This document shows positions 1,574 to 38,011 of a DNA stretch of 64,000 bases, one piece after another. The DNA is from a bacterium (lineage in GTDB: Bacteria; Planctomycetota; Planctomycetia; Planctomycetales; Planctomycetaceae), in the NCBI GenBank assembly GCA_016124895.1, contig WGMU01000114.1, positions 62,001-126,000 on the forward strand, written 5' to 3'. Below the pieces are notes generated by a model. The model was not told the origin of the DNA, searched no databases, and worked only from the letters and a program-made list of their open reading frames with translations. A program made the translations under genes and the position numbers. Position 1 is the first letter of the stretch; every line of letters begins with the position of its first letter.

Positions 1574-1782
1574 GGTCAACTCCGATGATGGTTCGCTGAG
1601 TCGAGAGTTCCACAGGTTTCGAGCAAGACTCTGACGGGCGACGATCGACGCCGTCAACTCGACGGCGCAGGCATGACGTTCGGACTGGCAACTCACTCAG
1701 TGGAGATGTCGCCGAGCCTCCACTCTAATGGATGACCTGTCGATTGCTCCCCGCTCCATCTTCCTCTCGATTGAGGCTCCCT

Positions 1783-16869: not shown

Positions 16870-17159
16870 AACGTTCTCCTGTTCGTCCTGAGTGCAGTTC
16901 GCTGACTCTCTTTCATCGATCGCAAGCGAATGATTGCAGAGGATCGATCAGGAATCGATACCGAGCGGACCTTTCCGCCATGTTCCGTCCACGTGCGGGA
17001 AAGCAGCATCTTGCTTCCCTGAAGTCATTCAGAATCTCTGAGTCCCTTTACAGGCCACTCTGATCCGTGAATCTATTGTCGTGAACAACGTTCGCCGAAC
17101 TTCGTCAGTTGGACGGTGTCGGCGGTGATTTCGTCAGGAACCCGTCAGTAAAGAAGACC

Positions 17160-20114
17160 ATGAAGCAAGTCATTGTCATTTCAGTCGTCGTGCTGCTGAG
17201 TCTGAATCCGGTGTCTGGTGCCGATCAGCCTTCACTGCGGGTGAAACCGCTTTCACCGGAAGACTCGCTGAAGTCGATGGTTGTACGGCCGGGCTTTCGA
17301 GTCGAACTCGTCGCGAGCGAACCTCTGATTCAGGATCCGGTCGCCGTTGATTTTGACGCGCAGGGACGGATGTATGTCATCCAGCTCCCGCCGTACAACG
17401 CCTACGCAGTGCCGGATTTCAAGGAGTCTGGCTCCATCGTTGTGCTCGAAGATGTCGACAACGACGGTCGCTGCGAGAAGAAGTCGGTTTTCGTCGACGA
17501 CTTAAAGTACCCAAGTGCGATTGCGTGCTGGGACGGCGGCGTGTTTGTCGGCGACGCTCCGGACCTGCTGTATCTCAAGGATACCGACGGCGATGGCCGG
17601 GCCGATCGTCGCGACGTCGTATTCAGCGGGTTTGCGACGGATAAGGCCGGCGAGTCGCATCTCAACTCGATCCGCTGGGGACTCGACAACCGCTTCCATC
17701 TGTCGACGAGCCTGGCGGGCGGCAACATCGTCGCGACGGCTGCGAAAGACGCGAAGCCAGTGTCCGTTCGCGGTCGCGGATTCATTTTCGATCCGCGCGA
17801 CCTGACGAAGTTCGAGCTGACATCAGGTGGTGGCCAACACGGCATGAGCATGGACAACTGGGGCCGCAAATTTACCTGCGGCAACAGCGAGCCCGGCCTG
17901 TCGTACATGTACGACGACCGCTACGTCGCCCGGAACCCGCAGCTTAAGGCTCCGGCGGTCATGGTCGACATCACGCCGGAGGGCAAGTTCACGCACCTGT
18001 TCCGCATCAGCCCGCCCGAGCCGTGGCGCGAACTGCGGACGACGCTCCGCCGTGAAGGCAAATTCCGAGGCTCGGACGAAGGCGGCAAGCCGTTCGGGTT
18101 CTTCACCGGGGCGACCGGAATCACGATCTATCGCGGTGACGCCTGGCCGGCGGAGTATCGCGGCAACGTGATTGTCGGCGAGGTCGCGAACAACCTCGTT
18201 TACCGGGCACGCCTCGAACCGAACGGCGTCGGCGTGACGGCGGTTCGGGCGGACGAAGACGCCGAATTTCTGGCAGCGAAGGACATCTGGTTCCGACCCG
18301 TGCAGTTTGCGAATGCACCTGACGGGACGCTTTATATTCTCGATATGTATCGCGAGCTGATCGAGGGAGCCGCGTTTCTGCCGCCGGAGTTTCTTCAAAC
18401 GCTGGATGCGATGAGCGGGCACGATCGCGGCCGCATTTACCGCATTGCTCCGGCGGACTTCTCCAGTCGACGCGGGCAGTCAGACCTCGGTGATGCGTCG
18501 ACGGCCGAACTCGTCCGTCTGCTCGAACATTCCAACTGCTGGCACCGTGACACGGCTTCGCGGCTGCTCTATCAGCGGCAGGATTCGTCGCCGGTTCCGG
18601 CACTGGAAGAACTGGCCGTCAGCTCGGCACTGGCGGAAGGCCGCGCCGCCGCGTTGACGTCGCTGGCTGGCCTCGATGCGCTCGAAGAAGCGACGCTGCT
18701 GACGGCTCTCGACGATGCGTCGCCGCAGGTCCGAGCACATTCGCTGCGGCTGGCCGAGTCGCTCGCCCCGCGGTCTCAGGCGATTCGTGCGAAGCTCGCC
18801 GCGATGACCGAGGACGGCTCTTTGACCGTCCGTTATCAGCTCGCCTTTTCGCTCGGAGCCGCTCCCGGATCGACCGCGACGCAGGCGCTGGTGAAGATTG
18901 CGTTGCAGGACTCAGGCAACAGTTGGATGCGGCTGGCGGTACTCAGCTCGCTGCAGCAGAACGCGGGGACGGCTTTCGAGTCGCTCGCCGCCGACGCTGC
19001 TTTTCGACAGAGCCCGCATGGAACAACTCTGCTATCGACGCTCGCCGAGCAGGTCGGCGGAGCTGGCAACGAAGGTGAGATCGCTCTGATTGTTCGGGCC
19101 GTTGCCGGGCTGCCCGAATCCGAAACGTCGCTCAAGGAGACACTTGTCAAAGCGCTCGTCGCGCGGCAGAACGATGCTGGTCGCAAGAAGCTGCTGGCTG
19201 CTGCGGGAGGACAGACATCCGAACTGCTGGCCGGCGTGGTCGCTGCTGCAAAGGCCATGGCGATTGACTCGAAGGCCGACGAGGGGAAACGCGCGGCTGC
19301 TGTTCAAAACCTGCGCCTGGCGGGATTCCCGGAAGTCCGGCCGCTGCTGGAGAAACTGCTGCAGCCTGGCGAACCGCTGGCTGTTCAGGCGGCGGCGATC
19401 GAGTCCGCGGCGGCGTTCCGTGACGGCGGCGTTGCGGAACTGCTGCTGGATGCCTGGCCGGTTCTCAGTCCGGGGCTGCGCACGCGAGCCGGCGAGACAC
19501 TGCTGTCTCGCCCGGCATGGCTCGATCGCTTTCTAACGGCCGTTGAAGATGGAATCGTCAAGCCATTCGACGTCCCTGCCGCCCGAGTCGATCTGCTGCG
19601 CCGGCATCCGGATGCCGATGTGGCGGCGCGAGTGAATCGTCTGTTTGTTGTCTCGCGATCTTCGCGGCAGGAAGTCGTCGACCAGTACAAGGCAGCTTTG
19701 AAGGCAACGGGCGATTCGCAGCGAGGTAAGGAAGTCTTCAAAAAGAACTGCTCGGCATGCCATCAACTGGAAGGCGTCGGGCGTCGGATTGGTGCCGAGC
19801 TGAAGGGTATCCGTCAGCGGGGAATGGCGTCTGTCCTGTTGAACATTCTGGATCCGAATCGCGAAGTGAAGCCGGAGTTTCTCGCCTACACATTGCTGAC
19901 GACGGATGGCCGCTCGGTCGCGGGCATGATTGGTTCGGAAACCGCGAATGATCTCGTCATCCGGCAGTTGGACGGAACGGACACCGAAGTGCGTCGAGCG
20001 GACATCGAACTGCTCCAGAATTCCGGCCTGTCTTTCATGCCGGAAGGTCTGGAGAAAACGGTTTCGATCGAGCAGATGGCCGATCTTCTGAGCTATCTGA
20101 ATTCACTCGAATAA
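17160..20114 (+). CDS. PVC-type heme-binding dehydrogenase-like protein with HEAT repeats
   Basis: A 984-residue secreted protein. The ATG at 17160 opens a signal peptide (MKQVIVISVVVLLSLNPVSG). Residues about 35-430 form a propeller of the planctomycete putative membrane-bound dehydrogenase type: MVVRPGFRVELVASEP, VLEDVDNDGRCEKKSVF, ITIYRGDAWP. A long alpha-helical HEAT-like region follows (about 440-840). The cytochrome c domain shows CSACHQLEGVG near residue 864 and ends QMADLLSYLNSLE. It shares architecture with the proteins at 1783 and 28060 but is single-gene. Expected to be an exported redox enzyme; substrate unknown. Confidence 0.87.
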   Translation: MKQVIVISVVVLLSLNPVSGADQPSLRVKPLSPEDSLKSMVVRPGFRVELVASEPLIQDPVAVDFDAQGRMYVIQLPPYNAYAVPDFKESGSIVVLEDVDNDGRCEKKSVFVDDLKYPSAIACWDGGVFVGDAPDLLYLKDTDGDGRADRRDVVFSGFATDKAGESHLNSIRWGLDNRFHLSTSLAGGNIVATAAKDAKPVSVRGRGFIFDPRDLTKFELTSGGGQHGMSMDNWGRKFTCGNSEPGLSYMYDDRYVARNPQLKAPAVMVDITPEGKFTHLFRISPPEPWRELRTTLRREGKFRGSDEGGKPFGFFTGATGITIYRGDAWPAEYRGNVIVGEVANNLVYRARLEPNGVGVTAVRADEDAEFLAAKDIWFRPVQFANAPDGTLYILDMYRELIEGAAFLPPEFLQTLDAMSGHDRGRIYRIAPADFSSRRGQSDLGDASTAELVRLLEHSNCWHRDTASRLLYQRQDSSPVPALEELAVSSALAEGRAAALTSLAGLDALEEATLLTALDDASPQVRAHSLRLAESLAPRSQAIRAKLAAMTEDGSLTVRYQLAFSLGAAPGSTATQALVKIALQDSGNSWMRLAVLSSLQQNAGTAFESLAADAAFRQSPHGTTLLSTLAEQVGGAGNEGEIALIVRAVAGLPESETSLKETLVKALVARQNDAGRKKLLAAAGGQTSELLAGVVAAAKAMAIDSKADEGKRAAAVQNLRLAGFPEVRPLLEKLLQPGEPLAVQAAAIESAAAFRDGGVAELLLDAWPVLSPGLRTRAGETLLSRPAWLDRFLTAVEDGIVKPFDVPAARVDLLRRHPDADVAARVNRLFVVSRSSRQEVVDQYKAALKATGDSQRGKEVFKKNCSACHQLEGVGRRIGAELKGIRQRGMASVLLNILDPNREVKPEFLAYTLLTTDGRSVAGMIGSETANDLVIRQLDGTDTEVRRADIELLQNSGLSFMPEGLEKTVSIEQMADLLSYLNSLE

Positions 20115-20992: not shown

Positions 20993-23900
20993 ATGGCCGA
21001 CGTGTGGGAATTCTGGATCGACGTCGGAGGCACATTTACCGACTGCATCGCACGCAGTCCGGACAATCAGCTCCTGACTGCGAAGGTACTCAGTTCTGGG
21101 ATTACAAAGGGGCAGGTCGACGAGATTGTCGGCACCGATCGGCTCGTTGACGAAACTCGGCGCGGAGATACAGACGGCTTCTGGGCTGGCTACAGGATTC
21201 GATTTCTCGACGCTCACGGACAGGCAGTGCATCAGGGCGTTGTCCGAACGTCTTCTGCAGCGCGGCGGATGCTGCAGATCGAGCAGCCTCTGCCGGAGAC
21301 CGTTCGTCCCGGCATGGCTTATGAACTCGATGCCGAGCAAGAGGCGCCGATTCTCGCGATCCGTTGGCTGCTTGGGCTGAAGCGCGACGCTGTGATCCCA
21401 CGCGTCTCGGTCAGGCTGGGCACAACGCGCGGCACGAACGCACTGCTGACACGAAGCGGAGCCCGCACGGCGTTCATCACGACGAAGGGTTTCGCGGATG
21501 TTCTGCTGATCGGGAATCAGGATCGTCCGCGGCTGTTTGACCTCGCGATCAAAAAACCGGATCCGCTGTTCGAGCGAGTGGTCGAGATCGACGAGCGGCT
21601 CGCGGCCGATGGTTCTGTGCTGCGGGCTCCCGACCGGGAAACCGTGCGGCGGCAGCTTGAGGAACTGCGGACGACCGGCGTCGAATCAATCGCGATCTGC
21701 CTGTTGCACTCGTTCGCCAACCTGCAGCATGAGTACCTGGTCGAGGAGATCGCACGTGACGTCGGCTTCACGGAGGTCAGCACGTCGAGCCGTCTGGCGC
21801 CGCTGATCCGCATTGTCTCACGCGGTGACACGACGGTCATGGACGCGTATCTCAACCCGATCCTGCGCGACTACGTACGGAAGCTGCGAGACTCTCTGGG
21901 CGACAGCGACCTGCGGCTGATGACGTCGGCTGGTGGACTCGTCGACGCGGACAGCTTTGTCGGCAAAGACAGCATCCTGTCCGGGCCCGCGGGCGGAGTC
22001 ATCGGCTTTTCCCGTGTCGCTCAGCAGGCGGGTTTTGAGAAGTCGATCGGCTTTGACATGGGCGGGACCAGTACCGACGTCTCGCGCTTCGACGGTCGTT
22101 ATGAGCTGGAGTTTGAGACTCAGAAAGCCGGTGTCCGCATTGTCTCGCCGATGCTGGCCATCGAGACCGTCGCGGCGGGCGGTGGCAGTATCTGCGGGTT
22201 CGATGGCGTGAAACTGTTTGTCGGTCCACAGAGCGCCGGGGCGGATCCCGGGCCTGCCTGTTACGGCCGCGGTGGTCCACTGACAGTGACCGACATCAAT
22301 GTTGTTCTCGGTCGAGTGCTGCCCGAGCACTTCCCGTTTCCGCTGCATCTGGAACGCGTGCAATCGCAGCTCGAATCGCTGTGCGACGAGACCGCCGCGT
22401 CGCCGCTCGGCCAGCGTTACTCGCCCATCGAACTCGCTGACGGTTTCCGGCAGATCGCCAATGCGAACATGGTGCGAGCCATCCGTCGCATTTCGGTCGC
22501 AAAGGGCTACGACCCGGCCGACTACGTGCTTGTGAGTTTCGGCGGAGCTGGTTCGCAGCACGCTTGCGCGCTCGCTCGATCGCTGGGCACTCCGCGCGTA
22601 CTCATTCATCCGTACTCGGGAATCCTCAGTGCCTACGGGATCGGACTCGCCGATGTCCGCCGCTTCGCAGAACGCTCGATCCTGGCCGAACTGAATCCGT
22701 CCGAACTGTCGCACATCGAAGCCGTCTTCTCCGAGCTGGCCGCCGAAGCGCGAGCGGAAGTCGAACGCGAAGGGCTCCCGGCTGAGCAGATCGAGTTGCC
22801 GGTCCGGTCGCTCGAACTGCGATATCGCGGCACCGAGTCATCCATCCTGATTCTCGAACCCGACGACAGCGACTGGCGGTCGGCGTTCGAGGTTCAGCAC
22901 GAGCAGCTTTACGGATATCGGCACGCGTCGCGTTCGCTGGAGGCGCTCGTCGCGCGAGTTGAAGTCGTCGGCCGAATGCTCGACCCACCAGACACTATTG
23001 CCGAACGAAGACCACGTCAGCCCGAGCCATCATCTGTCACAGCCGCGTGGTTCGATGGCGAAGAACTCGAATGTGGTGTCTTCCTGCGAGCAGACCTGCG
23101 CAGCGGCGACGAAATCACTGGCCCGGCCATCGTCTGCGAACCAACCTCGACCGTCGTCATCGACCCCGGCTGGATTGCCACGATCGAACCCCGCGGCGAA
23201 CTCCTGCTGACCGATCACACACGACCGGGTGCCACTGCCGGCCTGCCAGAGCAGGCAAGCACTGCCGGGCAAGCCGGCAGTGGCACCCAGACTCTCAACT
23301 CTGGACCCTCGACTCTGGACTCCTCTCCCGATCCCGTTCTGCTCGAAATCTTCAACAACCTGTTCGCGTCCATTGCCGAGCAGATGGGCGTCACCCTGCA
23401 GAAGACGTCGTTCTCGACGAACGTCAAAGAGCGGCTCGATTTCAGTTGTGCGATCTTCACCCCGACGGGCGATCTGGTCGTCAACGCGCCGCACATTCCC
23501 GTTCACCTCGGGGCGATGAGCGAGACGGTCAAGCAATTGCTCGCAGAGGTTCCGGACATGGCCCCCGGCGATGTGTATGTCACCAACGACCCGTTCCGTG
23601 GCGGCTCACACCTTCCCGATGTGACGGTGATTACGCCGGTGCATGATCCGTCGAGTGGCCAACTGATCTTCCTGACCGCCAGCCGTGCTCATCATGCCGA
23701 GATCGGCGGCATCGTGCCGGGAAGTATGCCGCCGTTTTCGAAAACACTGGCCGAAGAAGGCGTTCTGATTCGCAGCTTCCGGCTGGTTGCGGGCGGTGAA
23801 TCGCGCGAGGACGAACTGCGGGAACTGCTCTCCAGCGGGCCGTACCCGAGTCGTTCTGTCGAGGACAATCTGGCCGATGTGTCCGCTCAGGTCGCGGCGA

Positions 23901-24868
23901 ACAATGTCGGCGTGCGGCAGCTTCGAGAACTGGTCGAGCGGTACTCGCTGGCGGTCGTCCACGCCTACATGCACCACATCCAGGCGGCGGCTGCGGCCAA
24001 GATGCGGCTCGCCCTGACGCGGCTCGACGACGGCACGTACCAGCGAACCGACCATCTCGACGACGGAGCGTCGATCAGCGTTGCCATCGAGATTCACGGT
24101 GACTCAGCGACAGTCGATTTCACCGGCACGGGGCCGGTGCTCGATACGAACCTCAACGCGAACCGAGCCATCGTGACGGCGGCGGTGCTGTACGTGTTCC
24201 GCTGCCTGATTGACGAGGACATCCCGCTCAACAGCGGCGTCCTGGAACCTGTCCAGATCGTCCTGCCCGAGTGTCTGCTCAACCCGCCGTCACACGACGA
24301 TCCGGCAGACTGCGTTGCCATCGTCGGTGGTAACGTCGAGACGTCGCAACGCGTTGTCGACGTCCTGCTGGGAGCGCTCGGGCTCGCGGCCGCCAGCCAG
24401 GGCACGATGAACAATCTGACGTTCGGCGACGGCACGTTCGGCTATTACGAAACGATCTGTGGCGGCAGCGGTGCGACACCCGGCGCCGACGGCGCCGACG
24501 CCGTGCATACTCACATGACAAACACGCGTCTGACTGACGCCGAAGTCATCGAACGCCGCTACCCGGTCCGTCTGCACGAGTTCTCAATCCGCCGCGGTTC
24601 CGGCGGATCGGGAAAACATCGCGGCGGCGACGGTATCGTCCGCCGCATCGAATTCCTGAAACCCCTGACCGTCTCGCTGCTGACTCAACGCCGAGGAGAG
24701 TACGCTCCCTTCGGCCTCAACGGCGGCAGCAACGGAGCCATCGGCCACAACACCCTGCAGCGAGCCGGCAGCAACGAAGTCGAACAGCTCGCAGGCCGCG
24801 CCCGAGTCGACATCAACGCCGGCGACATCCTCACCATCGAAACCCCGGGCGGCGGCGGCTGGGGCTGA
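20993..24868 (+). CDS. Fused HyuA-HyuB hydantoinase/5-oxoprolinase
   Basis: A 1291-residue ATP-dependent amidohydrolase in which subunits often encoded separately are joined. The HyuA part (about 1-742) has the nucleotide motifs DVGGTFTDC near residue 10 and [16 protein letters not shown] near 353. The HyuB part (about 780-1291) begins [20 protein letters not shown] and contains [14 protein letters not shown] and ends [10 protein letters not shown]. Candidate reactions are opening of 5-oxoproline, hydantoin or acetone/acetophenone carboxylation-like steps. The linker, residues about 745-766, is encoded by a palindromic repeat (23227-23288) followed by a low-complexity Ser/Thr/Leu tract. No proteins of the same pathway adjoin. 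Confidence 0.9.
23227..23288. repeat. Palindromic repeat embedded in the hyuAB coding sequence
   Basis: Arms at 23227-23247 and 23268-23288 pair at 20 of 21 positions (left arm starts gggtgccactgccggc). Its length of 62 bp keeps the surrounding frame open and it encodes a Gly/Ala/Thr-rich linker. It resembles the intergenic repeat at 44989-45063, which also begins gtgccactg. Confidence 0.8.
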
Positions 24869-28038: not shown

Positions 28039-28063
28039 CGCTGCGCTCCTTGGTCCGGCCTAC
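28039..28063 (-). repeat. Right copy of inverted repeat flanking the OLD-family gene
   Basis: Complementary to 25926-25947; reads cgctgcgctccttggtccgg on the plus strand. It overlaps the last codons and the stop of the neighbouring PVC heme gene (stop 28060-28062). Confidence 0.75.
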
Positions 28064-31000
28064 TTTCCGTGGTGGTGGTGCTTCAGGTGTTCGGGGAGCT
28101 GGTAGCCGCCGTCTTCTACGAAGGCGTGGAGGTCGAGGAGTTCGTCCTTCGTTAACACGTTGGCCAGACCGACGGGCATCGGGGAGACCTTCGAGGCGAT
28201 CTTTTCGTCGATGTCCTTCTTCGGGACGGTCGTCAGCGACGTTGGGGTGAGCAGGTTGGTGGCGACCTCGTACGCGGCTTTGGTTTCCTTCATCACGACA
28301 CCGGCGACAAGGCGGCCGTCGTTGAGGATGAACTGCCAGGTCTGGAACTTCTCGTTGATCTTCGCGGACGGTTCGAGAATCTGACGCAGCAGTTCTTCGC
28401 CCTTCAGCTTCTTGACGGACTCGGTCAGGTCGGGGCCGAGGTTCACTCCGTGACCGGCGATGACATGGCACTGGTTGCAGCGGGCTTTGACGAACGCCGT
28501 CATGCCGCGCGTCACGGTGGCGGCGTCGGGCTTGCGGGCGAGTTTGTCGAAGTCTTTGAAGTCGGCCATCGTCCACTCTTTGACGACTTTCGGCTGAGCC
28601 TCGGCCAGCAGGGCGTCGGCGGCGGACTGGGTTTCGGCGACGACCATCACGCCGTTCATCACGACCCAGTGGCCGGGGAACGTGCAGACGTACGGGTAAA
28701 TGCCGGGTTCGGTCGGCGCTTCAAACCGCAGCACGGAAATCTGAGCGGCTCGCGTCGGGCCGATCATCTTCGAGGCGTGCAGGATCAGGTCGCCCTTCTC
28801 GCGCGGGATGAAGTCCGAGGCGGCGTTGCGCGGGTCCTTGGCCATTTCGTTGGCGGCCATGCCGACTTCGGCGAGCGCTCCGGGCTTCACGACGACGAAG
28901 TTGTGATCCGTCGCGTCGGGGTTCGTGAACACGACTTTGACCGGCTGCCCCGGCTTCGCGACGAACTGCCGGATCGAGAACAGCATCCGCTCGGGTACGC
29001 AGGTCACGTCGACTTTCAGCAGACCTTTCTGGCGATCGAACTGAGCCTGCGCGGCGGTCGGCGTCGGTTCTTTGATCGCCTTTTCTTTCGCGGCTTCCTT
29101 CAGGATCTTCGCGATCGTCTGGTCGGAGTCGTTCTCCCAGAACGGTCGCAGCGTTTTCGCGCCGAGAGCGCAGGTGATCGCGTACTGCAGGTGCCCGTGG
29201 CGCGCGTGCTTGAGCGTGTCGAGCATCGCGTCGAACGCCGGACGGGTGCCGATATAGCTGGCGGCAATCGCGGCCTGCATCCGGACGATGCCGTTTGCAT
29301 CGTTGGCGGCTTTGCGGAGTAGTTCCGCGGCGTCGGGCATTTCCGAGTGCCAGTAGCGAAGCTGTTCGGTCGCGGCGGCTCGCGCGTGGTGATCGTCGCA
29401 GGCAAGCAGTTCACGCAGCAGGTCGGGGCGTGATTCGCCAATGCCTCGGTACAGCCAGACGGCTTCGATCTGGTGATGCCGCAAACGCGGATCATCGGCG
29501 TCGAGGTTCGTCACCCAGCGATCGAGGGCTGCGGCAACAGCGGCGGAATCGCGTTCGCGGAGTTCGCGTTTGGCCCAGTAGCGATAGCGGTACTCGGGAC
29601 GTTTCAGGATGCTGAGCAGGTCGTCGATCGGAGCGCCGGCGATCGGTGGCGGATCCTGCAGCGGGCGGCCTTTGGTCGTGATCCGCCAGATGCGGCCCGA
29701 GTGGCGGTCACGGCGGTCGTCACGCAGCGAGTACTGCATGTGGCCCTTGATCGGGTTGTACCAGTCGCAGACATACATGGCTCCGCGCGGGCCGAACCGC
29801 AGGTCGACGGGGATGAAGCTGAGGTTCGTCGAGAAGATGACGTCGCCGACGTATTCCTCGTCAAAGCCGAACGGGCCTTCTTTCCATCTGTGGATCTCGA
29901 CCCGATTGGTGGGCTTGTAACGGACCTTGATAAAGCCGCCGCGAAGTTCGTCGGGGAACGTGTCGAAGTCGATGAACTCGTGCCCGCAGACGCCCGAGTA
30001 CGCCTGCAGTCCCTGCGGTCGCGGGTGCTGCGTTGGATACGGCGGATCGAGGGCGTGGAACGCGGTGGCGTAGACCGGGTGGCTGGCGACGTGCTGGCCC
30101 CAGTCGTCGAACGTGACGCCCCACGGGTTGGTGCTGGGGTACGTGCCGAAGCTGATCAGCCGCTGTTCGCGCGGCGTGAAGCGGAACCAGCCGCTGTTCT
30201 GCTGCCGCACAGGACCATACGGCGTTTCGACCTGCGAGTGATGAAAGATTGACTCGCGGAAGATGAGATCGCCGTCCGGTGTCCAGACGAAATCGTGCAG
30301 AGAATGATGTGAGTCCTCGGTGCCGAAGCCGGTCAGCACGATCTCGTGGACGTCGGCCTTGTCGTCGCCGTCGGTGTCTTTGAGGAAGCTCAAGTGTGGC
30401 TGCTCGGAGACGTAAACACCGCCGTCGCCGAACTCGAACGACAGCGGAATGTGCAGGTCGTCGGCGAAGACGGTGGACTTGTCGGCGCGACCGTCCTGGT
30501 CAGTGTCTTCGAGGATGACGATTTTGTCGTTCGGTTCGTTGCCCGGATAAACGTGTGGGTAGGTCAGCGAGCAGCTCACCCACAGCCGGCCGCGAGCGTC
30601 CCAGCGCATCTGAATCGGGTTGGCGATGTCGGGGAACTGCTCCTCGCCGGCGAACAGGTTGACCTCGAACCGCGGGTCGACCTGAAATGCCTTCTGCTCA
30701 TCCGCCGCCGTCATCCACTCGTTGGCTCCCCGGTTCTGAATCGTGGCTGGGAGTTCGGGTGCGTTGGAGTCGTCGGGCGTTGCGGGGACCTGCTCGCCGC
30801 GAGCAATCCGCCGGATGCGGTCGTCGCGGTTGGCGACCATGATGTCGAAGTTCCGCATCGCCGGCAGGAAGTCGAGGTAGCCGTAATCCTTGTTGCGACC
30901 GCCGGTGTAATAAAACGTGTTGACCGGTCGGAAGCGGCGGAAGAACTGACGGTTCTTATCGACGATCGCCTGCCGCAGCGGCTCGCTGATCGCGGGAGCT

Positions 31001-31866
31001 TCCTCGCCGAAGACCTGCTGAAACAGAGCCCCGGAGAACACCGCGTCGCCCTGCTGCGTGAGATGGATCCCGTTGATCGTCAGGTCCGAACCGGGGCTTC
31101 GCATGGCCGCTTCGGTCTGCACGAAGACGTCCGCGAAGCCGACCTGCTGCTCGGCCGCGACCTGTTTCATCGCCTGCGTGTAGAGGCGGATGTGCTCGTT
31201 GTTGAGGTCAGCGGCGGCGACGCGTTCGACGTTCTCGTTGGCGATCGGCGAAACGAGGATGACTCGCGGAGCGGACTCGCCGTTGAACGCTCGCGACTTC
31301 AGCCGAGTGACGTAATCAGTGAGCCGCTTCCGGAAGTCGTTGAGGCCATCCTCGCCCGCGAACGATTCGTTGAAGCCGTACGCCGCGAAGATGACGTTGG
31401 CCTTTTCGTGCGTCAGATGCTGCTCGGTATCCGCGAAGTTGTCGGGGCGAGGTTGGTTGTCAATCTCGTCCGCCGACCAGGCGAGGTGTCGCACAGTGAG
31501 GTTCAGGTCGGGAAACCGTTTCTGCAGTTGAGCCTCGAAGTTGCCGAACGCCGCCGCACGATCAAACAGCGTGTTACCGATCAGCGCGATCCGGTCACCT
31601 TTTCGCAACTTGAGTGGCAGCGTCGTCGCGACGAGTGTTGCGTCGGCAGCTCGCGGAGCCGTCTGCTCATAGATGCCGAAGCGGTCAAACTTTTCTGTCG
31701 TCAGCGGCGTGGCCTGTTCGATCTTGACGTTCTTGGCATCCTCCGGCTTGCCTGCGTTCGTCTGCGATGTTGGCTGCTGAGCGGCCAGTGGGCGATCGAC
31801 GGAGCCGAGGAACGAGAGAGCAACGGTGACGGACAGGGCGGCGAGTAGAACGGTGAATGAGCGCAT
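28060..31866 (-). CDS. Multidomain SGNH-propeller-HEAT-cupredoxin-cytochrome c protein
   Basis: A 1268-residue secreted protein (signal MRSFTVLLAALSVTVALSF). Order: an SGNH/GDSL-like domain (about 85-300) with GNTL in place of GDSL, YGFNES and NGIHL in place of DxxH, so the catalytic residues look lost; a propeller of the PVC putative dehydrogenase type (about 370-700; VILEDTDQDGRADKSTVF); HEAT-like repeats (about 730-960); a plastocyanin/azurin-like domain (about 970-1085) with copper ligands suggested by DHNF and CTFPGHWVVM; a cytochrome c domain with CNQCH near 1129; then a His-rich tail. GAGG lies before the ATG. Copper and heme in one chain suggest intramolecular electron transfer to an external acceptor. 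The final codons are inside a repeat. Confidence 0.88.
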   Translation of the reverse strand: MRSFTVLLAALSVTVALSFLGSVDRPLAAQQPTSQTNAGKPEDAKNVKIEQATPLTTEKFDRFGIYEQTAPRAADATLVATTLPLKLRKGDRIALIGNTLFDRAAAFGNFEAQLQKRFPDLNLTVRHLAWSADEIDNQPRPDNFADTEQHLTHEKANVIFAAYGFNESFAGEDGLNDFRKRLTDYVTRLKSRAFNGESAPRVILVSPIANENVERVAAADLNNEHIRLYTQAMKQVAAEQQVGFADVFVQTEAAMRSPGSDLTINGIHLTQQGDAVFSGALFQQVFGEEAPAISEPLRQAIVDKNRQFFRRFRPVNTFYYTGGRNKDYGYLDFLPAMRNFDIMVANRDDRIRRIARGEQVPATPDDSNAPELPATIQNRGANEWMTAADEQKAFQVDPRFEVNLFAGEEQFPDIANPIQMRWDARGRLWVSCSLTYPHVYPGNEPNDKIVILEDTDQDGRADKSTVFADDLHIPLSFEFGDGGVYVSEQPHLSFLKDTDGDDKADVHEIVLTGFGTEDSHHSLHDFVWTPDGDLIFRESIFHHSQVETPYGPVRQQNSGWFRFTPREQRLISFGTYPSTNPWGVTFDDWGQHVASHPVYATAFHALDPPYPTQHPRPQGLQAYSGVCGHEFIDFDTFPDELRGGFIKVRYKPTNRVEIHRWKEGPFGFDEEYVGDVIFSTNLSFIPVDLRFGPRGAMYVCDWYNPIKGHMQYSLRDDRRDRHSGRIWRITTKGRPLQDPPPIAGAPIDDLLSILKRPEYRYRYWAKRELRERDSAAVAAALDRWVTNLDADDPRLRHHQIEAVWLYRGIGESRPDLLRELLACDDHHARAAATEQLRYWHSEMPDAAELLRKAANDANGIVRMQAAIAASYIGTRPAFDAMLDTLKHARHGHLQYAITCALGAKTLRPFWENDSDQTIAKILKEAAKEKAIKEPTPTAAQAQFDRQKGLLKVDVTCVPERMLFSIRQFVAKPGQPVKVVFTNPDATDHNFVVVKPGALAEVGMAANEMAKDPRNAASDFIPREKGDLILHASKMIGPTRAAQISVLRFEAPTEPGIYPYVCTFPGHWVVMNGVMVVAETQSAADALLAEAQPKVVKEWTMADFKDFDKLARKPDAATVTRGMTAFVKARCNQCHVIAGHGVNLGPDLTESVKKLKGEELLRQILEPSAKINEKFQTWQFILNDGRLVAGVVMKETKAAYEVATNLLTPTSLTTVPKKDIDEKIASKVSPMPVGLANVLTKDELLDLHAFVEDGGYQLPEHLKHHHHGK

Positions 31867-31973: not shown

Positions 31974-32067
31974 TTTCAGCCGCAGATACACGCAGATTTT
32001 CGCAGATGAATCACGGCAGGCTTCCTGTCTGAAATCTGCGTCTATCTGCGTGCATCTGTGGCTGAAA
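31974..32067. repeat. Palindromic intergenic repeat (cgcagat type)
   Basis: Arms 31974-32007 and 32034-32067 are complementary at 29 of 34 positions (left arm begins tttcagccgcagatacacgc). It lies between the multidomain heme gene and the ferredoxin gene. A decayed half-copy may be present near 13820-13865. Confidence 0.75.
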
Positions 32068-32099: not shown

Positions 32100-32134
32100 A
32101 AAACCCGACGTCTCAAGGTGAGGCGTCGGGCTTC
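32100..32134 (-). terminator. Rho-independent terminator of the ferredoxin gene
   Basis: Stem cccgacgcctc/gagacgtcggg (one G-U) about 50 bases after the ferredoxin stop, followed on the minus strand by TTTT (32100-32103 on the plus strand are aaaa). On the plus strand it is followed by cttctt, so it may act in both directions. Confidence 0.75.
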
Positions 32135-35499: not shown

Positions 35500-36891
35500 T
35501 CAGTACTCGCGCTTCTTCGTGATGCCGGGCATCGGGACCGGATACTTGCCGTTGGGCAGTTTGGCCAGCGGGGCCGGGCCGCCGAGCACGAGCTTGTCGG
35601 CGTCCGGTGCGAACTCGTGCTCGTGGTTGAGCATTTCGTCGAGCGTCATGACCTGGCCGGTGTGAGCGGCGAAGCGGCCCATTGCCGTGACGAGGCTCGC
35701 CATCGCGCCACGTTCGACTTCGTTGTACGGCGTGTCGTTCCTGATCGCCGTGACGATGTCTTCCCATTCGACCTGGTACGGGTTCGGTTCAGGCTTGTCG
35801 TATTCCCAGACCAGCTTGCCAGGATCGATGCCGCCGTCACCCTTGTCGACTTTATAGCCGCTGAAAATGCGGCTCTTTGCGGGCAAATGGCCGGCTGTTG
35901 AAAAGATGACCGAGCCCTTCGTGCCCTGTGCGTAGGTCGCGAAGTCCTGATGGCAGCCCGCGATCGTGCGGCCGTTAACGTTCATCTTCGTGCCGTCCTC
36001 GAACGTGTATTCGATCGAGTAGCTGTCGAAGTTCTGGTCGATCATGTCTCCACGGTAGTGGCGACCGCCCGACGCCTTTGCCTGAACCGGCCAGGCTCCC
36101 TTCAGCCAGCAGCCTTCGTCGATATTGTGAATCAGGAAGTCGCTGACGGCGCCGCCGCTGGCCCACAAAAACGCATGGAAGCGACGAATCTGCCACTCGA
36201 GATCGCCCATGCCTTCCGGAGCCGGCCCCGTGGCTGCCGAACCGGTCGGGCCGGCCATCCGGTAAGCCCGGATGTTGAGCACGTCGCCGATCTCACCGTC
36301 GTGAATCCTTCTGGCCGCTTCGCCGCGCGCCAGGCAGTGGCGGCACATCAGACCAACGCCAACCTTCAGGTTCTTCTCGATGGCCTTCTTGTTGAGTTCC
36401 AGCATCTTGCGGGTCGTCGGGCCTTCCGTCGTGATCGGCTTCTCCATGAAGACGTTCAGGCCCTTCTCGATCGCGTAGCCATAGTGAACCCAGCGGAACG
36501 CGACTGGCGTCGTCAGAATGACGATGTCGCCAGGACGCAGCGTGTCCATGGCCTTTTTGTAAGCGTCGAATCCGATGAACCGCGTATCGTCGGTCACCTT
36601 GAAACGGTCTTTATGCCGGTTCTGCAGCGCGTTGAAGCTGGTGCTCTGGCGGTCTTCAAAGACGTCGGCCATCGCGACAAGTTCAACACGACCAGCCTGC
36701 GCACTCATCGCATTATCAGCCGCACCCGTCCCGCGGCCACCGCAGCCGACCAGAGCAACGCGGATCGTGTCATCGCCTGCCGCGTAAACGTGCTGTCCAG
36801 CAGCGCCGACCAGAGCTGCCGCTCCCGCCAGTCGGCCGGAATCCTTCAGAAAGTCGCGACGCGACGCATTCGCAGGTGACTTGTCAGACAT
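35500..36891 (-). CDS. Tat-exported Gfo/Idh/MocA family oxidoreductase
   Basis: A 463-residue homologue of the 12157-13644 protein. The Tat motif SRRDFLKD near residue 10 is followed by a hydrophobic stretch and a cleavage region near HVYAAGDD. The Rossmann motif is IRVALVGCGGRGTGAADNAM; the EKP motif is FMEKPITTEGPT near residue 155. GGAG lies before the ATG. It is preceded 154 bp upstream by a ThuA-like gene; ThuA proteins frequently neighbour such oxidoreductases and are thought to share a sugar-utilisation pathway. A strong terminator closes the operon. Confidence 0.9.
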   Translation of the reverse strand: MSDKSPANASRRDFLKDSGRLAGAAALVGAAGQHVYAAGDDTIRVALVGCGGRGTGAADNAMSAQAGRVELVAMADVFEDRQSTSFNALQNRHKDRFKVTDDTRFIGFDAYKKAMDTLRPGDIVILTTPVAFRWVHYGYAIEKGLNVFMEKPITTEGPTTRKMLELNKKAIEKNLKVGVGLMCRHCLARGEAARRIHDGEIGDVLNIRAYRMAGPTGSAATGPAPEGMGDLEWQIRRFHAFLWASGGAVSDFLIHNIDEGCWLKGAWPVQAKASGGRHYRGDMIDQNFDSYSIEYTFEDGTKMNVNGRTIAGCHQDFATYAQGTKGSVIFSTAGHLPAKSRIFSGYKVDKGDGGIDPGKLVWEYDKPEPNPYQVEWEDIVTAIRNDTPYNEVERGAMASLVTAMGRFAAHTGQVMTLDEMLNHEHEFAPDADKLVLGGPAPLAKLPNGKYPVPMPGITKKREY

Positions 36892-37045
36892 GGTGAGGTC
36901 TCCAGATCGAGAATTTGGTGATGCGTTTTCGTACGGAAGATGCCCGGCATGAGCAGTCGCGCAGAGCCCGCGTCGTCACGGGCCGAAGGCAAATGATGGG
37001 CGGCGGACCGCAAAATCGCCAGTCGGCGGAGTGTCGAGCATCGTC

Positions 37046-38011
37046 TCAGTCGAACTTGCGGGCACTCTCCACGTCCGCCTTCGGAAAGTCCTGCGGAATT
37101 TCCTGCGTGACCTTGCCGGTTGCGGCCCATTCCGTGCCCCGCTGTAGCGAGACGATAAAGCCGACGCACTCCTGCGAGTAATCCGCGTGGCCCATTGGCG
37201 TGTGGAAGATGCGACCTTCGCCGTAGCGGATCGTCATCAGCATCGGTTCGTGACGACCGGTGCCGCCGAATTCCGGACTGGCGTACGCCGTCGCCAGGAT
37301 CTCCATGTTCGCGGCTGGTCCACGAAGCTTGTCGTACAGTTCATCCTTCGCGTGCATCCATTCGCGAGGCATCCCTTTCGTGATCGGATGAGATGGATCG
37401 CGAACGACGATGGCAAAGGGATGCTGGCTCCCATGATGCCCGCCTCCGCCTTTTGATTCGTCGCGGACGAGTTTGCCATCGTCGTCGAGATACACGTACG
37501 GACCGCTCGTTTCATTCCGACCACCCCAGCCTCCCAGGCCAATCATTTCGTTGTACTCCGGCCAGTCACCGAACGAGTTATCAGCCGCGTGGATGATGAC
37601 CAGCCCGCCGCCGCCTTTGACGTACTTCACGAACGCGTCCTGAGTTTCCTGCGGCCAGGGAGCCGCGCCGTGGCCGAAGTTCGAGATCACCACGTCGTAC
37701 TTTGAAAACGGCGGTTTGAAGTCCGGATCGGTCTGAGCCGACTTGACCGCCGTCGACTCGATGCTCGGCAGCGGGTACTTCGCGACCAGATCGCCGCCGT
37801 TGACCGTGAACTTCGTCCGCGCGACGTCGACGGAGAACAGGCCGGTCTGTTCGAGATACGACTTCATCATGACCGTCGTCTTCGGCCACGCGCCGTGATT
37901 GTTCTGCCCGTCGATAATCAACGCCTTCAACGGAGTCGCTGCCAGTGCAGACCCGCCCAGCGAAGCCACCATCACGGCCACCACAAACCTCAGACAACAA
38001 CGCAGCGACAT
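37046..38011 (-). CDS. Secreted ThuA-domain protein
   Basis: A 321-residue protein with a signal peptide (VVAVMVASLGGSALAATP) and AAGGAAG before the ATG. The fold resembles class I glutamine amidotransferases: LKALIIDGQNNHGAW, DVVISNFGHGAAPW, and FVKYVKGGGGLVIIHAADN, but ThuA proteins lack the catalytic cysteine triad. A conserved HPITKGMPREWMHAKDEL block is present. ThuA is linked to trehalose utilisation in rhizobia; here the neighbouring oxidoreductase gives the same sugar-related context. Confidence 0.87.
   Translation of the reverse strand: MSLRCCLRFVVAVMVASLGGSALAATPLKALIIDGQNNHGAWPKTTVMMKSYLEQTGLFSVDVARTKFTVNGGDLVAKYPLPSIESTAVKSAQTDPDFKPPFSKYDVVISNFGHGAAPWPQETQDAFVKYVKGGGGLVIIHAADNSFGDWPEYNEMIGLGGWGGRNETSGPYVYLDDDGKLVRDESKGGGGHHGSQHPFAIVVRDPSHPITKGMPREWMHAKDELYDKLRGPAANMEILATAYASPEFGGTGRHEPMLMTIRYGEGRIFHTPMGHADYSQECVGFIVSLQRGTEWAATGKVTQEIPQDFPKADVESARKFD

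What the first reader, a model, noticed from the sequence alone, without database searches (positions are those of the whole stretch)
28060..31866. Five-module copper-and-heme fusion with a degenerate SGNH domain
One polypeptide combines an SGNH-like domain that has lost its serine and aspartate (GNTL, NGIHL), a propeller, HEAT repeats, a complete type-1 copper site (DHNF, CTFPGHW, M) and a c-type heme. It could be a self-contained electron conduit from a substrate to an outside acceptor.
Basis: partly seen in the sequence, partly recalled or inferred. Interest (0 to 1): 0.55.

Follow-up and report, generated by a model that had tools for sequence, protein, structure and literature searches.

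The report
Copper-heme sugar-enzyme-like secreted planctomycete fusion
A large secreted protein of planctomycetes and their relatives strings together a dead esterase-like domain, a barrel shaped like a sugar-oxidising enzyme, a spacer, a blue-copper domain and usually a heme domain; it belongs to a large, almost untested protein family and probably works on sugars from complex polysaccharides.

Summary
On the minus strand, 31866..28060 encodes one 1268-aa protein: SGNH-like domain without Ser/Asp, propeller, HEAT repeats, azurin/auracyanin-type copper domain, monoheme cytochrome c. It is neither chance nor decay: 92 loci (three identical pairs among them) encode relatives at 55% identity or more, and the changed SGNH pocket is fixed (Asn98, Asn166, Asn265, His268 invariant; the former Ser variable): a pseudo-enzyme domain. 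It is a new variant of a known family, 'PVC-type heme-binding CxxCH proteins' (TIGR02604+TIGR02603). The propeller has the fold of quinoprotein sugar dehydrogenases (Z 24) and keeps a His at their active-site-loop position, but the Args aligned with the PQQ site are missing and no PqqC was found. Its pocket differs from paralogues at nearly fixed positions (D596H, R685I). Ten verrucomicrobial orthologues stop right after the copper domain: the heme is optional, which weakens the 'self-contained conduit'. Sulfatases are the commonest neighbour family, and a purified relative without the SGNH and copper modules (Lac161_ORF7, PMC5342196) released glucose from lactose. Best reading: a secreted glycan-targeting redox protein with copper as electron exit. 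Substrate, electron flow and copper-heme distance are untested.

The parts
28060..31866 (-). whole coding sequence, 1268 aa, five-module PVC-type heme-binding CxxCH protein with copper domain
31780..31866 (-). Sec-type signal peptide (residues 1-29; cleavage after ...PLAA judged by eye, no predictor run)
   Evidence: sequence; inference
31003..31614 (-). pseudo-SGNH domain (about residues 85-288)
   Evidence: Lipase_GDSL_2; structure matches to SGNH proteins
31567..31578 (-). SGNH block I: GNTL (97-100), canonical GDSL; Ser replaced
   Evidence: N98 85/85; position 99 T63 M6 S5 G4 A4 N2 L1
31366..31377 (-). SGNH block III: GFNE (164-167), Asn kept
   Evidence: N166 88/88; 17 of 20 paralogues
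31063..31074 (-). SGNH block V: NGIH (265-268), Asp replaced by Asn, His kept
   Evidence: N265 and H268 88/88; also 20/20 paralogues
29665..30687 (-). propeller with quinoprotein sugar dehydrogenase fold (residues 394-734)
   Evidence: 3a9g Z 24.3, 2g8s Z 23.1, 6h7t Z 22.4; DUF7133; TIGR02604
30304..30306 (-). His521, aligned with the His of the YliI loop NHFGG (His144 of sGDH by recall)
   Evidence: hhalign prob 97.5, positional confidence 5 of 9; His in 88/88 rows
29035..29628 (-). HEAT-repeat spacer (residues 747-944)
   Evidence: HEAT_2; helices in the model
28636..29025 (-). azurin/auracyanin-like cupredoxin domain (residues 948-1077)
   Evidence: 2aan Z 18.6, 6kol Z 18.5; PF00127
28903..28905 (-). 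copper ligand His988
   Evidence: 90/90
28657..28686 (-). copper loop CTFPGHWVVM (1061-1070): Cys, His, Met ligands
   Evidence: C 89/90, H 90/90, M 90/90
28102..28518 (-). monoheme cytochrome c domain (residues 1117-1255)
   Evidence: TIGR02603; relative of Kustd1711 (7zs0)
28465..28479 (-). heme-binding CNQCH (1130-1134)
   Evidence: CxxCH 77/77 rows with letters
28177..28179 (-). probable distal heme ligand Met1230 (SPMP)
   Evidence: Met 74/74 rows with letters; role inferred
37046..38011 (-). neighbour 5.2 kb upstream: stand-alone ThuA protein; a ThuA-like domain is fused to the N-terminus in 15 of 92 orthologous loci
35500..36891 (-). neighbour 3.6 kb upstream: Gfo/Idh/MocA oxidoreductase, same strand
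17109..20114 (+). paralogue without SGNH or copper domain (TIGR02604 + HEAT + CxxCH, 1001 aa), same layout as the purified Lac161_ORF7 (109.0 kDa)
   Evidence: Lac161_ORF7

Best explanation
A secreted (periplasmic or cell-surface) carbohydrate-targeting redox protein of the PVC-type heme-binding CxxCH family. The pseudo-SGNH domain is a dead hydrolase whose conserved Asn/Asn/Asn/His pocket binds rather than cuts (inferred). The propeller, which has the fold of quinoprotein sugar dehydrogenases, is the catalytic or substrate-handling module and acts on a sugar, most likely from sulfated or otherwise anionic polysaccharide (inferred). HEAT repeats hold the redox domains near the propeller (inferred). 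Electrons leave through the type-1 copper site; in most species they pass on to the c-type heme of the same chain, while in several verrucomicrobia the heme domain is absent and the copper must hand over to a separate carrier (inferred). Shown by calls: modules, folds, ligand conservation, loss of the hydrolase residues, optional heme, nearly fixed pocket changes. Not shown: export, substrate, direction of electron flow, catalysis.
For: Fold: propeller residues 397-734 match PQQ sugar dehydrogenases best (3a9g Z 24.3; YliI/Asd 2g8s Z 23.1; AA12 6h7t Z 22.4). Forced-global profile match to YliI plus 15 GSDH proteins, prob 97.5, His521 on the YliI loop His (confidence 5 of 9); His520 and His521 in 88/88 rows. 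Copper domain closest to auracyanin (Z 18.5-18.6), ligands His 90/90, Cys 89/90, His 90/90, Met 90/90. Heme: CxxCH 77/77, Met 74/74 where present. Optional heme: 10 orthologues stop after the copper domain; 7 of them, placed on a tree, lie among heme-bearing rows. Glycan context: Sulfatase is the commonest Pfam family among immediate neighbours, 12 of 110 scanned (110 of the 121 neighbours of 200 aa or more without ambiguous letters), against 80 sulfatase matches in the whole 8.13-Mb own genome; Gfo/Idh/MocA 5 of 110; ThuA fused in 15 of 92 loci and 5.2 kb upstream in the window; a copper+heme paralogue (L118) carries a NedA-like galactose-binding domain. A purified relative with TIGR02604+HEAT+CxxCH released glucose from lactose, Km 1.8 mM (PMC5342196; section 15 and passages).
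Against: No substrate or activity is known to me for any copper-bearing member. Lac161_ORF7 was reported as a hydrolase, not an oxidoreductase, and was made in E. coli BL21(DE3)pLysS, whose own LacZ could contaminate (recalled caveat). The Arg positions aligned with YliI's GIRNPQG and QRIRD are Thr579 (68/68 orthologues), Ile685 (68/68) and Val687 (66/68), and PqqC was not found, so the cofactor, if any, is unknown. Neighbourhoods vary: of the genes next to the orthologues 67 fell in no shared cluster, the largest single class. Distances between copper, heme and propeller pocket are untested.
Confidence: 0.45

Rival explanations
1. Glycoside hydrolase with redox accessories: the propeller cleaves glycosides, as reported for Lac161_ORF7, and copper and heme serve a redox-assisted step (for example a transient 3-keto sugar) or only structure and regulation.
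For: Lac161_ORF7 (TIGR02604+HEAT+CxxCH) purified, kcat 13.2 per s on lactose. ThuA fused in 15 of 92 loci and Gfo/Idh/MocA neighbours (5 of 110) are partners of 3-keto sugar chemistry (recalled).
Against: 33 positions between residues 85 and 899, 26 of them in the propeller (394-734), are nearly fixed but different between 68 orthologue rows and 20 paralogue rows, so activity may not carry over. Host LacZ could explain the one assay (recalled). The conserved copper ligands suggest real redox work.
Confidence: 0.2
2. Non-catalytic electron carrier or docking scaffold: pseudo-SGNH and propeller only bind glycan or cell wall, and copper/heme link a respiratory chain to another enzyme.
For: The SGNH domain lacks its catalytic residues; the copper domain resembles auracyanin, an electron carrier; other large PVC cytochromes (PSCyt, a separate family) often carry binding domains (PMC5615132, passages).
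Against: Invariant His520/521 and the subfamily-specific positions look like an active pocket. Optional heme does not suit a fixed wire.
Confidence: 0.2
3. PQQ-dependent sugar dehydrogenase wired to copper and heme (a classical quinohemoprotein with an added cupredoxin).
For: Fold and His521.
Against: Positions aligned with the YliI Args are Thr579, Ile685 and Val687 (positional confidence 6, 3 and 4 of 9); no PF07995 match listed for the protein at E 0.1; PqqC not found in the own genome and over its cut-off in 0 of 149 Planctomycetota, 5 weaker matches.
Confidence: 0.08
4. Respiratory reductase-like enzyme (nitrous-oxide-reductase analogue): a His-rich propeller centre plus cupredoxin.
For: Foldseek lists NosZ (1fwx_B, E 6.2e-07), and eleven His in residues 383-742 are conserved in at least 65 of 68 orthologue rows.
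Against: The NosZ matches have rmsd 24-27 A, so no common domain arrangement; the copper loop has one Cys, not the two of CuA (CuA motif recalled); the propeller is nearest to sugar dehydrogenases.
Confidence: 0.04

Closest known systems
PVC-type heme-binding CxxCH proteins (TIGR02604 Piru_Ver_Nterm + TIGR02603)
   Same: Propeller, HEAT repeats and CxxCH heme domain, both NCBIfam models over cut-off; 58 matching places in the own genome, in about 33 reading frames by my grouping.
   Different: Pseudo-SGNH and cupredoxin modules besides; propeller pocket differs from 20 SGNH-bearing paralogues at nearly fixed positions.
SGNH-propeller paralogues of the same genomes (e.g. L118, L119, L128-L137)
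   Same: Same pseudo-SGNH signature and propeller; 9 of the 20 compared also have copper and heme.
   Different: 33-44% identity; D596 and R685 in 20/20; extra 400-aa region before the copper domain in fused ones, or split genes without copper.
Lac161_ORF7 (PMC5342196)
   Same: TIGR02604 + HEAT_2 + CxxCH layout; the only biochemically assayed relative that I found.
   Different: No SGNH or copper domain reported; assayed as beta-galactosidase; its sequence was not at hand, so identity was not measured.
PQQ sugar dehydrogenases / GSDH (PF07995), AA12 pyranose dehydrogenase
   Same: Propeller fold and loop His; some AA12 enzymes also carry an electron-transfer domain on the chain (recalled).
   Different: Arg positions not kept, no PqqC found, no PF07995 match listed.
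Auracyanin / azurin
   Same: Fold and H-C-H-M ligands, CTFPGH loop.
   Different: Internal module of a 1268-aa protein; azurin equivalog cut-off not reached (23.4 vs 105.1 bits). The azurin survey PMC8779525 left out hits over 200 aa (passages).
SGNH/GDSL proteins (7br2, 4q9a, Axe2)
   Same: Fold (7br2 Z 22.1, 4q9a Z 20.9; Axe2), block III Asn and block V His.
   Different: Ser and Asp of the triad gone.

Membership tests
PVC-type heme-binding CxxCH protein | TIGR02604 N-terminal propeller domain over curated cut-off | tested here: met
   214.1 vs 122.2 bits
PVC-type heme-binding CxxCH protein | TIGR02603 CxxCH domain over curated cut-off | tested here: met
   93.5 vs 68.15 bits; absent in 10 verrucomicrobial orthologues
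SGNH hydrolase | SGNH fold with block III Asn and block V His | tested here: met
SGNH hydrolase | catalytic Ser in block I | tested here: not met
   Thr in the query; Ser in 5 of 85 rows
SGNH hydrolase | Asp of the DxxH motif | tested here: not met
   Asn in 88/88
PQQ sugar dehydrogenase (GSDH) | quinoprotein propeller fold | tested here: met
PQQ sugar dehydrogenase (GSDH) | PF07995 sequence match | tested here: not met
   not listed at E 0.1
PQQ sugar dehydrogenase (GSDH) | PQQ-site Arg residues | tested here: inconclusive
   Thr579 and Ile685 in 68/68 orthologue rows, but the alignment that equates them is forced global with confidence 6 and 3 of 9, and the roles of the Args are recalled
PQQ sugar dehydrogenase (GSDH) | PQQ supply (PqqC) in the genome | tested here: inconclusive
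   no match in own genome, control genomes silent too; one strong split match in another Planctomycetota genome shows that the search can see it; uptake from outside not excluded
Type-1 (blue) copper protein | His, Cys, His, Met ligands in a cupredoxin fold | tested here: met
   copper itself not measured
Azurin (TIGR02695 equivalog) | equivalog cut-off | tested here: not met
   23.4 vs 105.1 bits
c-type monoheme cytochrome | CxxCH and a conserved candidate distal Met | tested here: met
   77/77 and 74/74 rows with letters
Nitrous oxide reductase | CuA site (two Cys) in the cupredoxin domain | tested here: not met
   single Cys in CTFPGHWVVM
Lac161_ORF7-type beta-galactosidase | release of glucose from lactose | not testable with these tools
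   needs an enzyme assay
electron conduit | copper-heme distance within electron-tunnelling range | not testable with these tools
   no coordinates or PAE returned; pTM 0.77 for the two-domain piece

The most novel reading that the evidence does not exclude
The propeller of this subfamily is a re-tooled sugar-dehydrogenase pocket that has dropped PQQ and uses a His-rich, possibly copper-loaded centre (candidates His520, 521, 524, 542, 543, 592, 596; 524, 592 and 596 are His in orthologues but mostly not in paralogues) to oxidise anionic polysaccharide sugars, with the type-1 copper as obligatory electron exit and the heme as an optional extension: a new class of copper-wired carbohydrate oxidoreductase. 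Whether these His converge could not be checked.
Probability: 0.12. Interest if true: 0.75.

Novelty: new variant of a known kind. Interest (0 to 1): 0.47.

Why it matters
This genome has 58 places (about 33 reading frames by my grouping) that match the protein, so the family is a large unexplained part of PVC genomes. For the separate 'PSCyt' cytochromes of the same phyla a 2017 paper says nothing is known of their functions (PMC5615132, passages). This subfamily offers natural experiments: the same protein with and without heme, with and without a fused ThuA domain, with a dead SGNH module and with copper ligands that stay. It also shows that azurin-like domains recur in Planctomycetota inside large proteins (a close relative in 14 of 59 genomes, own included); the azurin survey PMC8779525 kept only hits of 100-200 aa and put its single planctomycete hit down to contamination or wrong annotation (passages).

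Tried and rejected
Intact SGNH esterase: rejected, Ser and Asp lost. Random decay of the SGNH domain: rejected, pocket residues invariant. PQQ enzyme: disfavoured. The PqqE search was uninformative because relatives ring in all 14 control genomes. NosZ-like enzyme: disfavoured. Counting copper domains genome-wide with PF00127 failed: the search listed 2 places in the own genome and missed the window's own domain, so it shows nothing about absence. Co-transcription with the upstream ferredoxin gene: open; the gap is 314 bases and holds a 34-nt inverted repeat and a hairpin at 32104-32130 that was listed only on the plus strand; terminator-like sites in the region (3) are not above shuffles (mean 4.4). 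A divergent SGNH frame in the own genome (L143) runs off its contig and has GGTF and DGVT motifs, so it says little. The ThuA search used a home-made profile of 4 sequences: 15 fused and 1 separate (4.5 kb away) among 92 loci, none in 76, of which 28 hold under 3 kb of upstream DNA. A conserved operon was not found: neighbours are diverse. Sulfatase clustering: a single-linkage cluster of 46 genes against 9.1 expected at the own genome's density, but only 26 of the 46 had a crude sulfatase signature, and other genomes may be richer in sulfatases. Rows not counted as heme-less: L091 (ambiguous letters, broken frame), L092 and L110 (run off their contigs), L018, L019 and L033 (partial). Of the 10 heme-less loci, 9 had neighbours listed (L111 not) and 7 were in the tree; in those 9, L113 and L114 hold other CxxCH genes further off (L113 one two genes upstream; L114 two, one of them with eight CxxCH). 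Papers: no paper describing the SGNH + propeller + HEAT + cupredoxin + cytochrome combination came up in the listings; the library holds only open-licence PMC papers. Read as passages only: PMC5615132, PMC8779525, PMC5673643, PMC8756737, PMC10732223; of PMC5342196 passages and section 15 (78, 80, 81).


Full report
1. What is there. The open reading frame lies on the minus strand, 31866..28060, 1268 aa. Domain models place a GDSL/SGNH domain, a DUF7133/TIGR02604 propeller, HEAT repeats, a plastocyanin/azurin-type copper domain and a CxxCH cytochrome domain in that order. A Sec-type N-terminus without a lipobox Cys is visible by eye, so export is likely but was not tested. AlphaFold2 on residues 75-1268 with an 88-row alignment gave mean pLDDT 87.7 and pTM 0.74.

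2. Known family, special branch. NCBI's models name it a 'PVC-type heme-binding CxxCH protein'. The own genome (8.13 Mb, completeness 99.78) has 58 matching places, which fall in about 33 reading frames by my grouping. Among 59 relatives searched (own included), 58 have some match at E 1e-60 or better, and 14 have a match of 58% identity or more, i.e. this branch (my count from the listing, which is cut at its weak end). A scan of GTDB contigs confirmed 337 related stretches; the best 80 were kept, 78 of them titled as Planctomycetota or Verrucomicrobiota members and 2 only as 'bacterium' (L039, L041). Loci used as orthologues: 92 at 55% identity or more (80, 12), with three identical pairs, so they are not all independent. 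Some orthologues carry an extra N-terminal ThuA domain.

3. The SGNH domain. Canonical GDSL, GxND and DxxH read here GNTL, GFNE and NGIH. Over 93 rows: Asn98 85/85, Asp133 86/86, Asn166 88/88, Asn265 88/88, His268 88/88, while the nucleophile position is T63 M6 S5 G4 A4 N2 L1. In 20 paralogues Asn265 and His268 are 20/20, Asn98 18/20, Asn166 17/20, and position 99 is T18 A2.

4. The propeller. VIA-align places residues 397-734 on PQQ sugar dehydrogenases first (3a9g Z 24.3, rmsd 3.1, 278 aligned; 2g8s Z 23.1; AA12 6h7t Z 22.4), with other propellers such as DFPase at about 20-21. A forced-global hhalign against YliI and 15 GSDH proteins of relatives gives probability 97.5; His521 falls on the His of NHFGG (positional confidence 5 of 9), Thr579-Asn580-Pro581 on Arg-Asn-Pro (6), Ile685 and Val687 on the two Args of QRIRD (3 and 4), and residue 596 is not reliably aligned (0). 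His520 and His521 are in 88/88 rows. Residue 685 is Arg in 20/20 paralogues and Ile in 68/68 orthologues; residue 596 is Asp 20/20 versus His 67/68; residue 579 is Thr 68/68 versus Ala 19/20. In all, 33 positions between 85 and 899, 26 of them in the propeller, are nearly fixed (97% of 68 rows, 85% of 20 rows) but different in the two groups. PqqC was not found in the own genome (control genomes silent too) and reached its cut-off in 0 of 149 Planctomycetota genomes, with 5 weaker matches, one of them strong but split in two frames.

5. Copper and heme. The cupredoxin is closest to auracyanin (2aan Z 18.6, 6kol Z 18.5; azurins about 16). Ligands: His988 90/90, Cys1061 89/90, His1066 90/90, Met1070 90/90; the one other Cys row, L110, runs off its contig. 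The heme domain is related by sequence to the diheme cytochrome Kustd1711 of Kuenenia (7zs0, E 4.1e-23; name). The two-domain piece 934-1262 was predicted with pLDDT 89.2 and pTM 0.77, but neither coordinates nor PAE are given, so the distance question is open.

6. Heme is optional. Ten verrucomicrobial loci (L103, L104, L108, L109, L111, L112, L113, L114, L116, L117) encode the same protein to the last strand of the copper domain and then stop. A search for the heme domain in these ten loci gave one match, in a separate propeller-heme gene of L113; in four heme-bearing control loci it found the domain at the end of the gene. Two of the ten hold little DNA after the gene (L111 33 bases, L116 452). 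Four other verrucomicrobial loci (L088, L098, L101, L107) have the heme. On a quick maximum-likelihood tree of 88 rows the 7 copper-only rows included need 4 changes, at least 3 forced by starred branches; the 11 copper-less rows form one branch next to copper+heme paralogues. Forks near these rows are partly weak, it is a short search with SH-aLRT support only, and such counts do not tell gain from loss by themselves. All 68 orthologue rows of A3 have the copper loop; 61 have the heme.

7. Context. Upstream on the same strand the window holds a ferredoxin, a DegT aminotransferase, an NAD-dependent epimerase/dehydratase, a Gfo/Idh/MocA oxidoreductase and a ThuA protein. Among immediate neighbours of the 80 named orthologous loci, 110 of 121 listed proteins (200 aa or more, no ambiguous letters) were scanned: Sulfatase 12, DUF1501 5, Gfo/Idh/MocA 5, PSCyt1 5, DUF7133 4. 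The own genome has 80 sulfatase matches in 8.13 Mb. In the own genome 4 of 10 ThuA matches lie in frames of 1386-1803 aa that also appear in the list. A copper+heme paralogue carries a NedA-like galactose-binding domain (L118).

8. What it does. One relative with TIGR02604, HEAT_2 and CxxCH, Lac161_ORF7, was purified and released glucose from lactose with Km 1.8 mM and kcat 13.2 per s (PMC5342196; section 15 and passages). By that description it lacks the SGNH and copper modules. Together with the sugar-dehydrogenase fold and the neighbours this makes a carbohydrate substrate the most likely one. The conserved type-1 copper site argues for one-electron transfer out of the propeller region. I therefore favour a glycan-targeting redox protein, copper as exit, heme as an optional next step; glycosidase action and a pure electron-carrier role remain live rivals.

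9. Limits. No activity, metal content or structure was measured. Roles and numbers of sGDH residues, 3-keto sugar chemistry of ThuA/Gfo proteins, the CuA motif and the LacZ caveat for BL21 are recalled, not from a call.

Noticed in passing
window 31974-32067: 34-nt inverted repeat (85% complementary arms, CGCAGATACACGCAGATTT type) in the gap upstream of the gene; the 99-base stretch has one other partial match (24 bases) in the own genome.
   Followed up: partly
window 35500-38011 (-): Gfo/Idh/MocA and ThuA genes side by side, a pairing known from trehalose/3-keto sugar use (recalled).
   Followed up: partly
L009, L012 and 13 other orthologous loci: ThuA-like domain fused in front of the SGNH domain, with frames of about 1310-1680 aa; L103, L114 and L116 have it without the heme.
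   Followed up: partly
L129-L131, L133, L134, L136, L137: Paralogues encoded as two genes on one strand: SGNH-propeller, then (directly in six of the seven; about 1.5 kb further in L136) a HEAT-cytochrome gene without a copper motif; a natural fusion/fission pair.
   Followed up: partly
window 1732-4710 and 17109-20114 (+): Two further TIGR02603 heme proteins in the same 64-kb window, the second with the layout of Lac161_ORF7.
   Followed up: no
window 20993-24868 (+): Fused hydantoinase A/B (oxoprolinase-type) protein of 1291 aa.
   Followed up: no
L114:878-2875: Frame with eight CxxCH motifs about 4 kb upstream of a heme-less orthologue; a possible electron acceptor, not studied.
   Followed up: no
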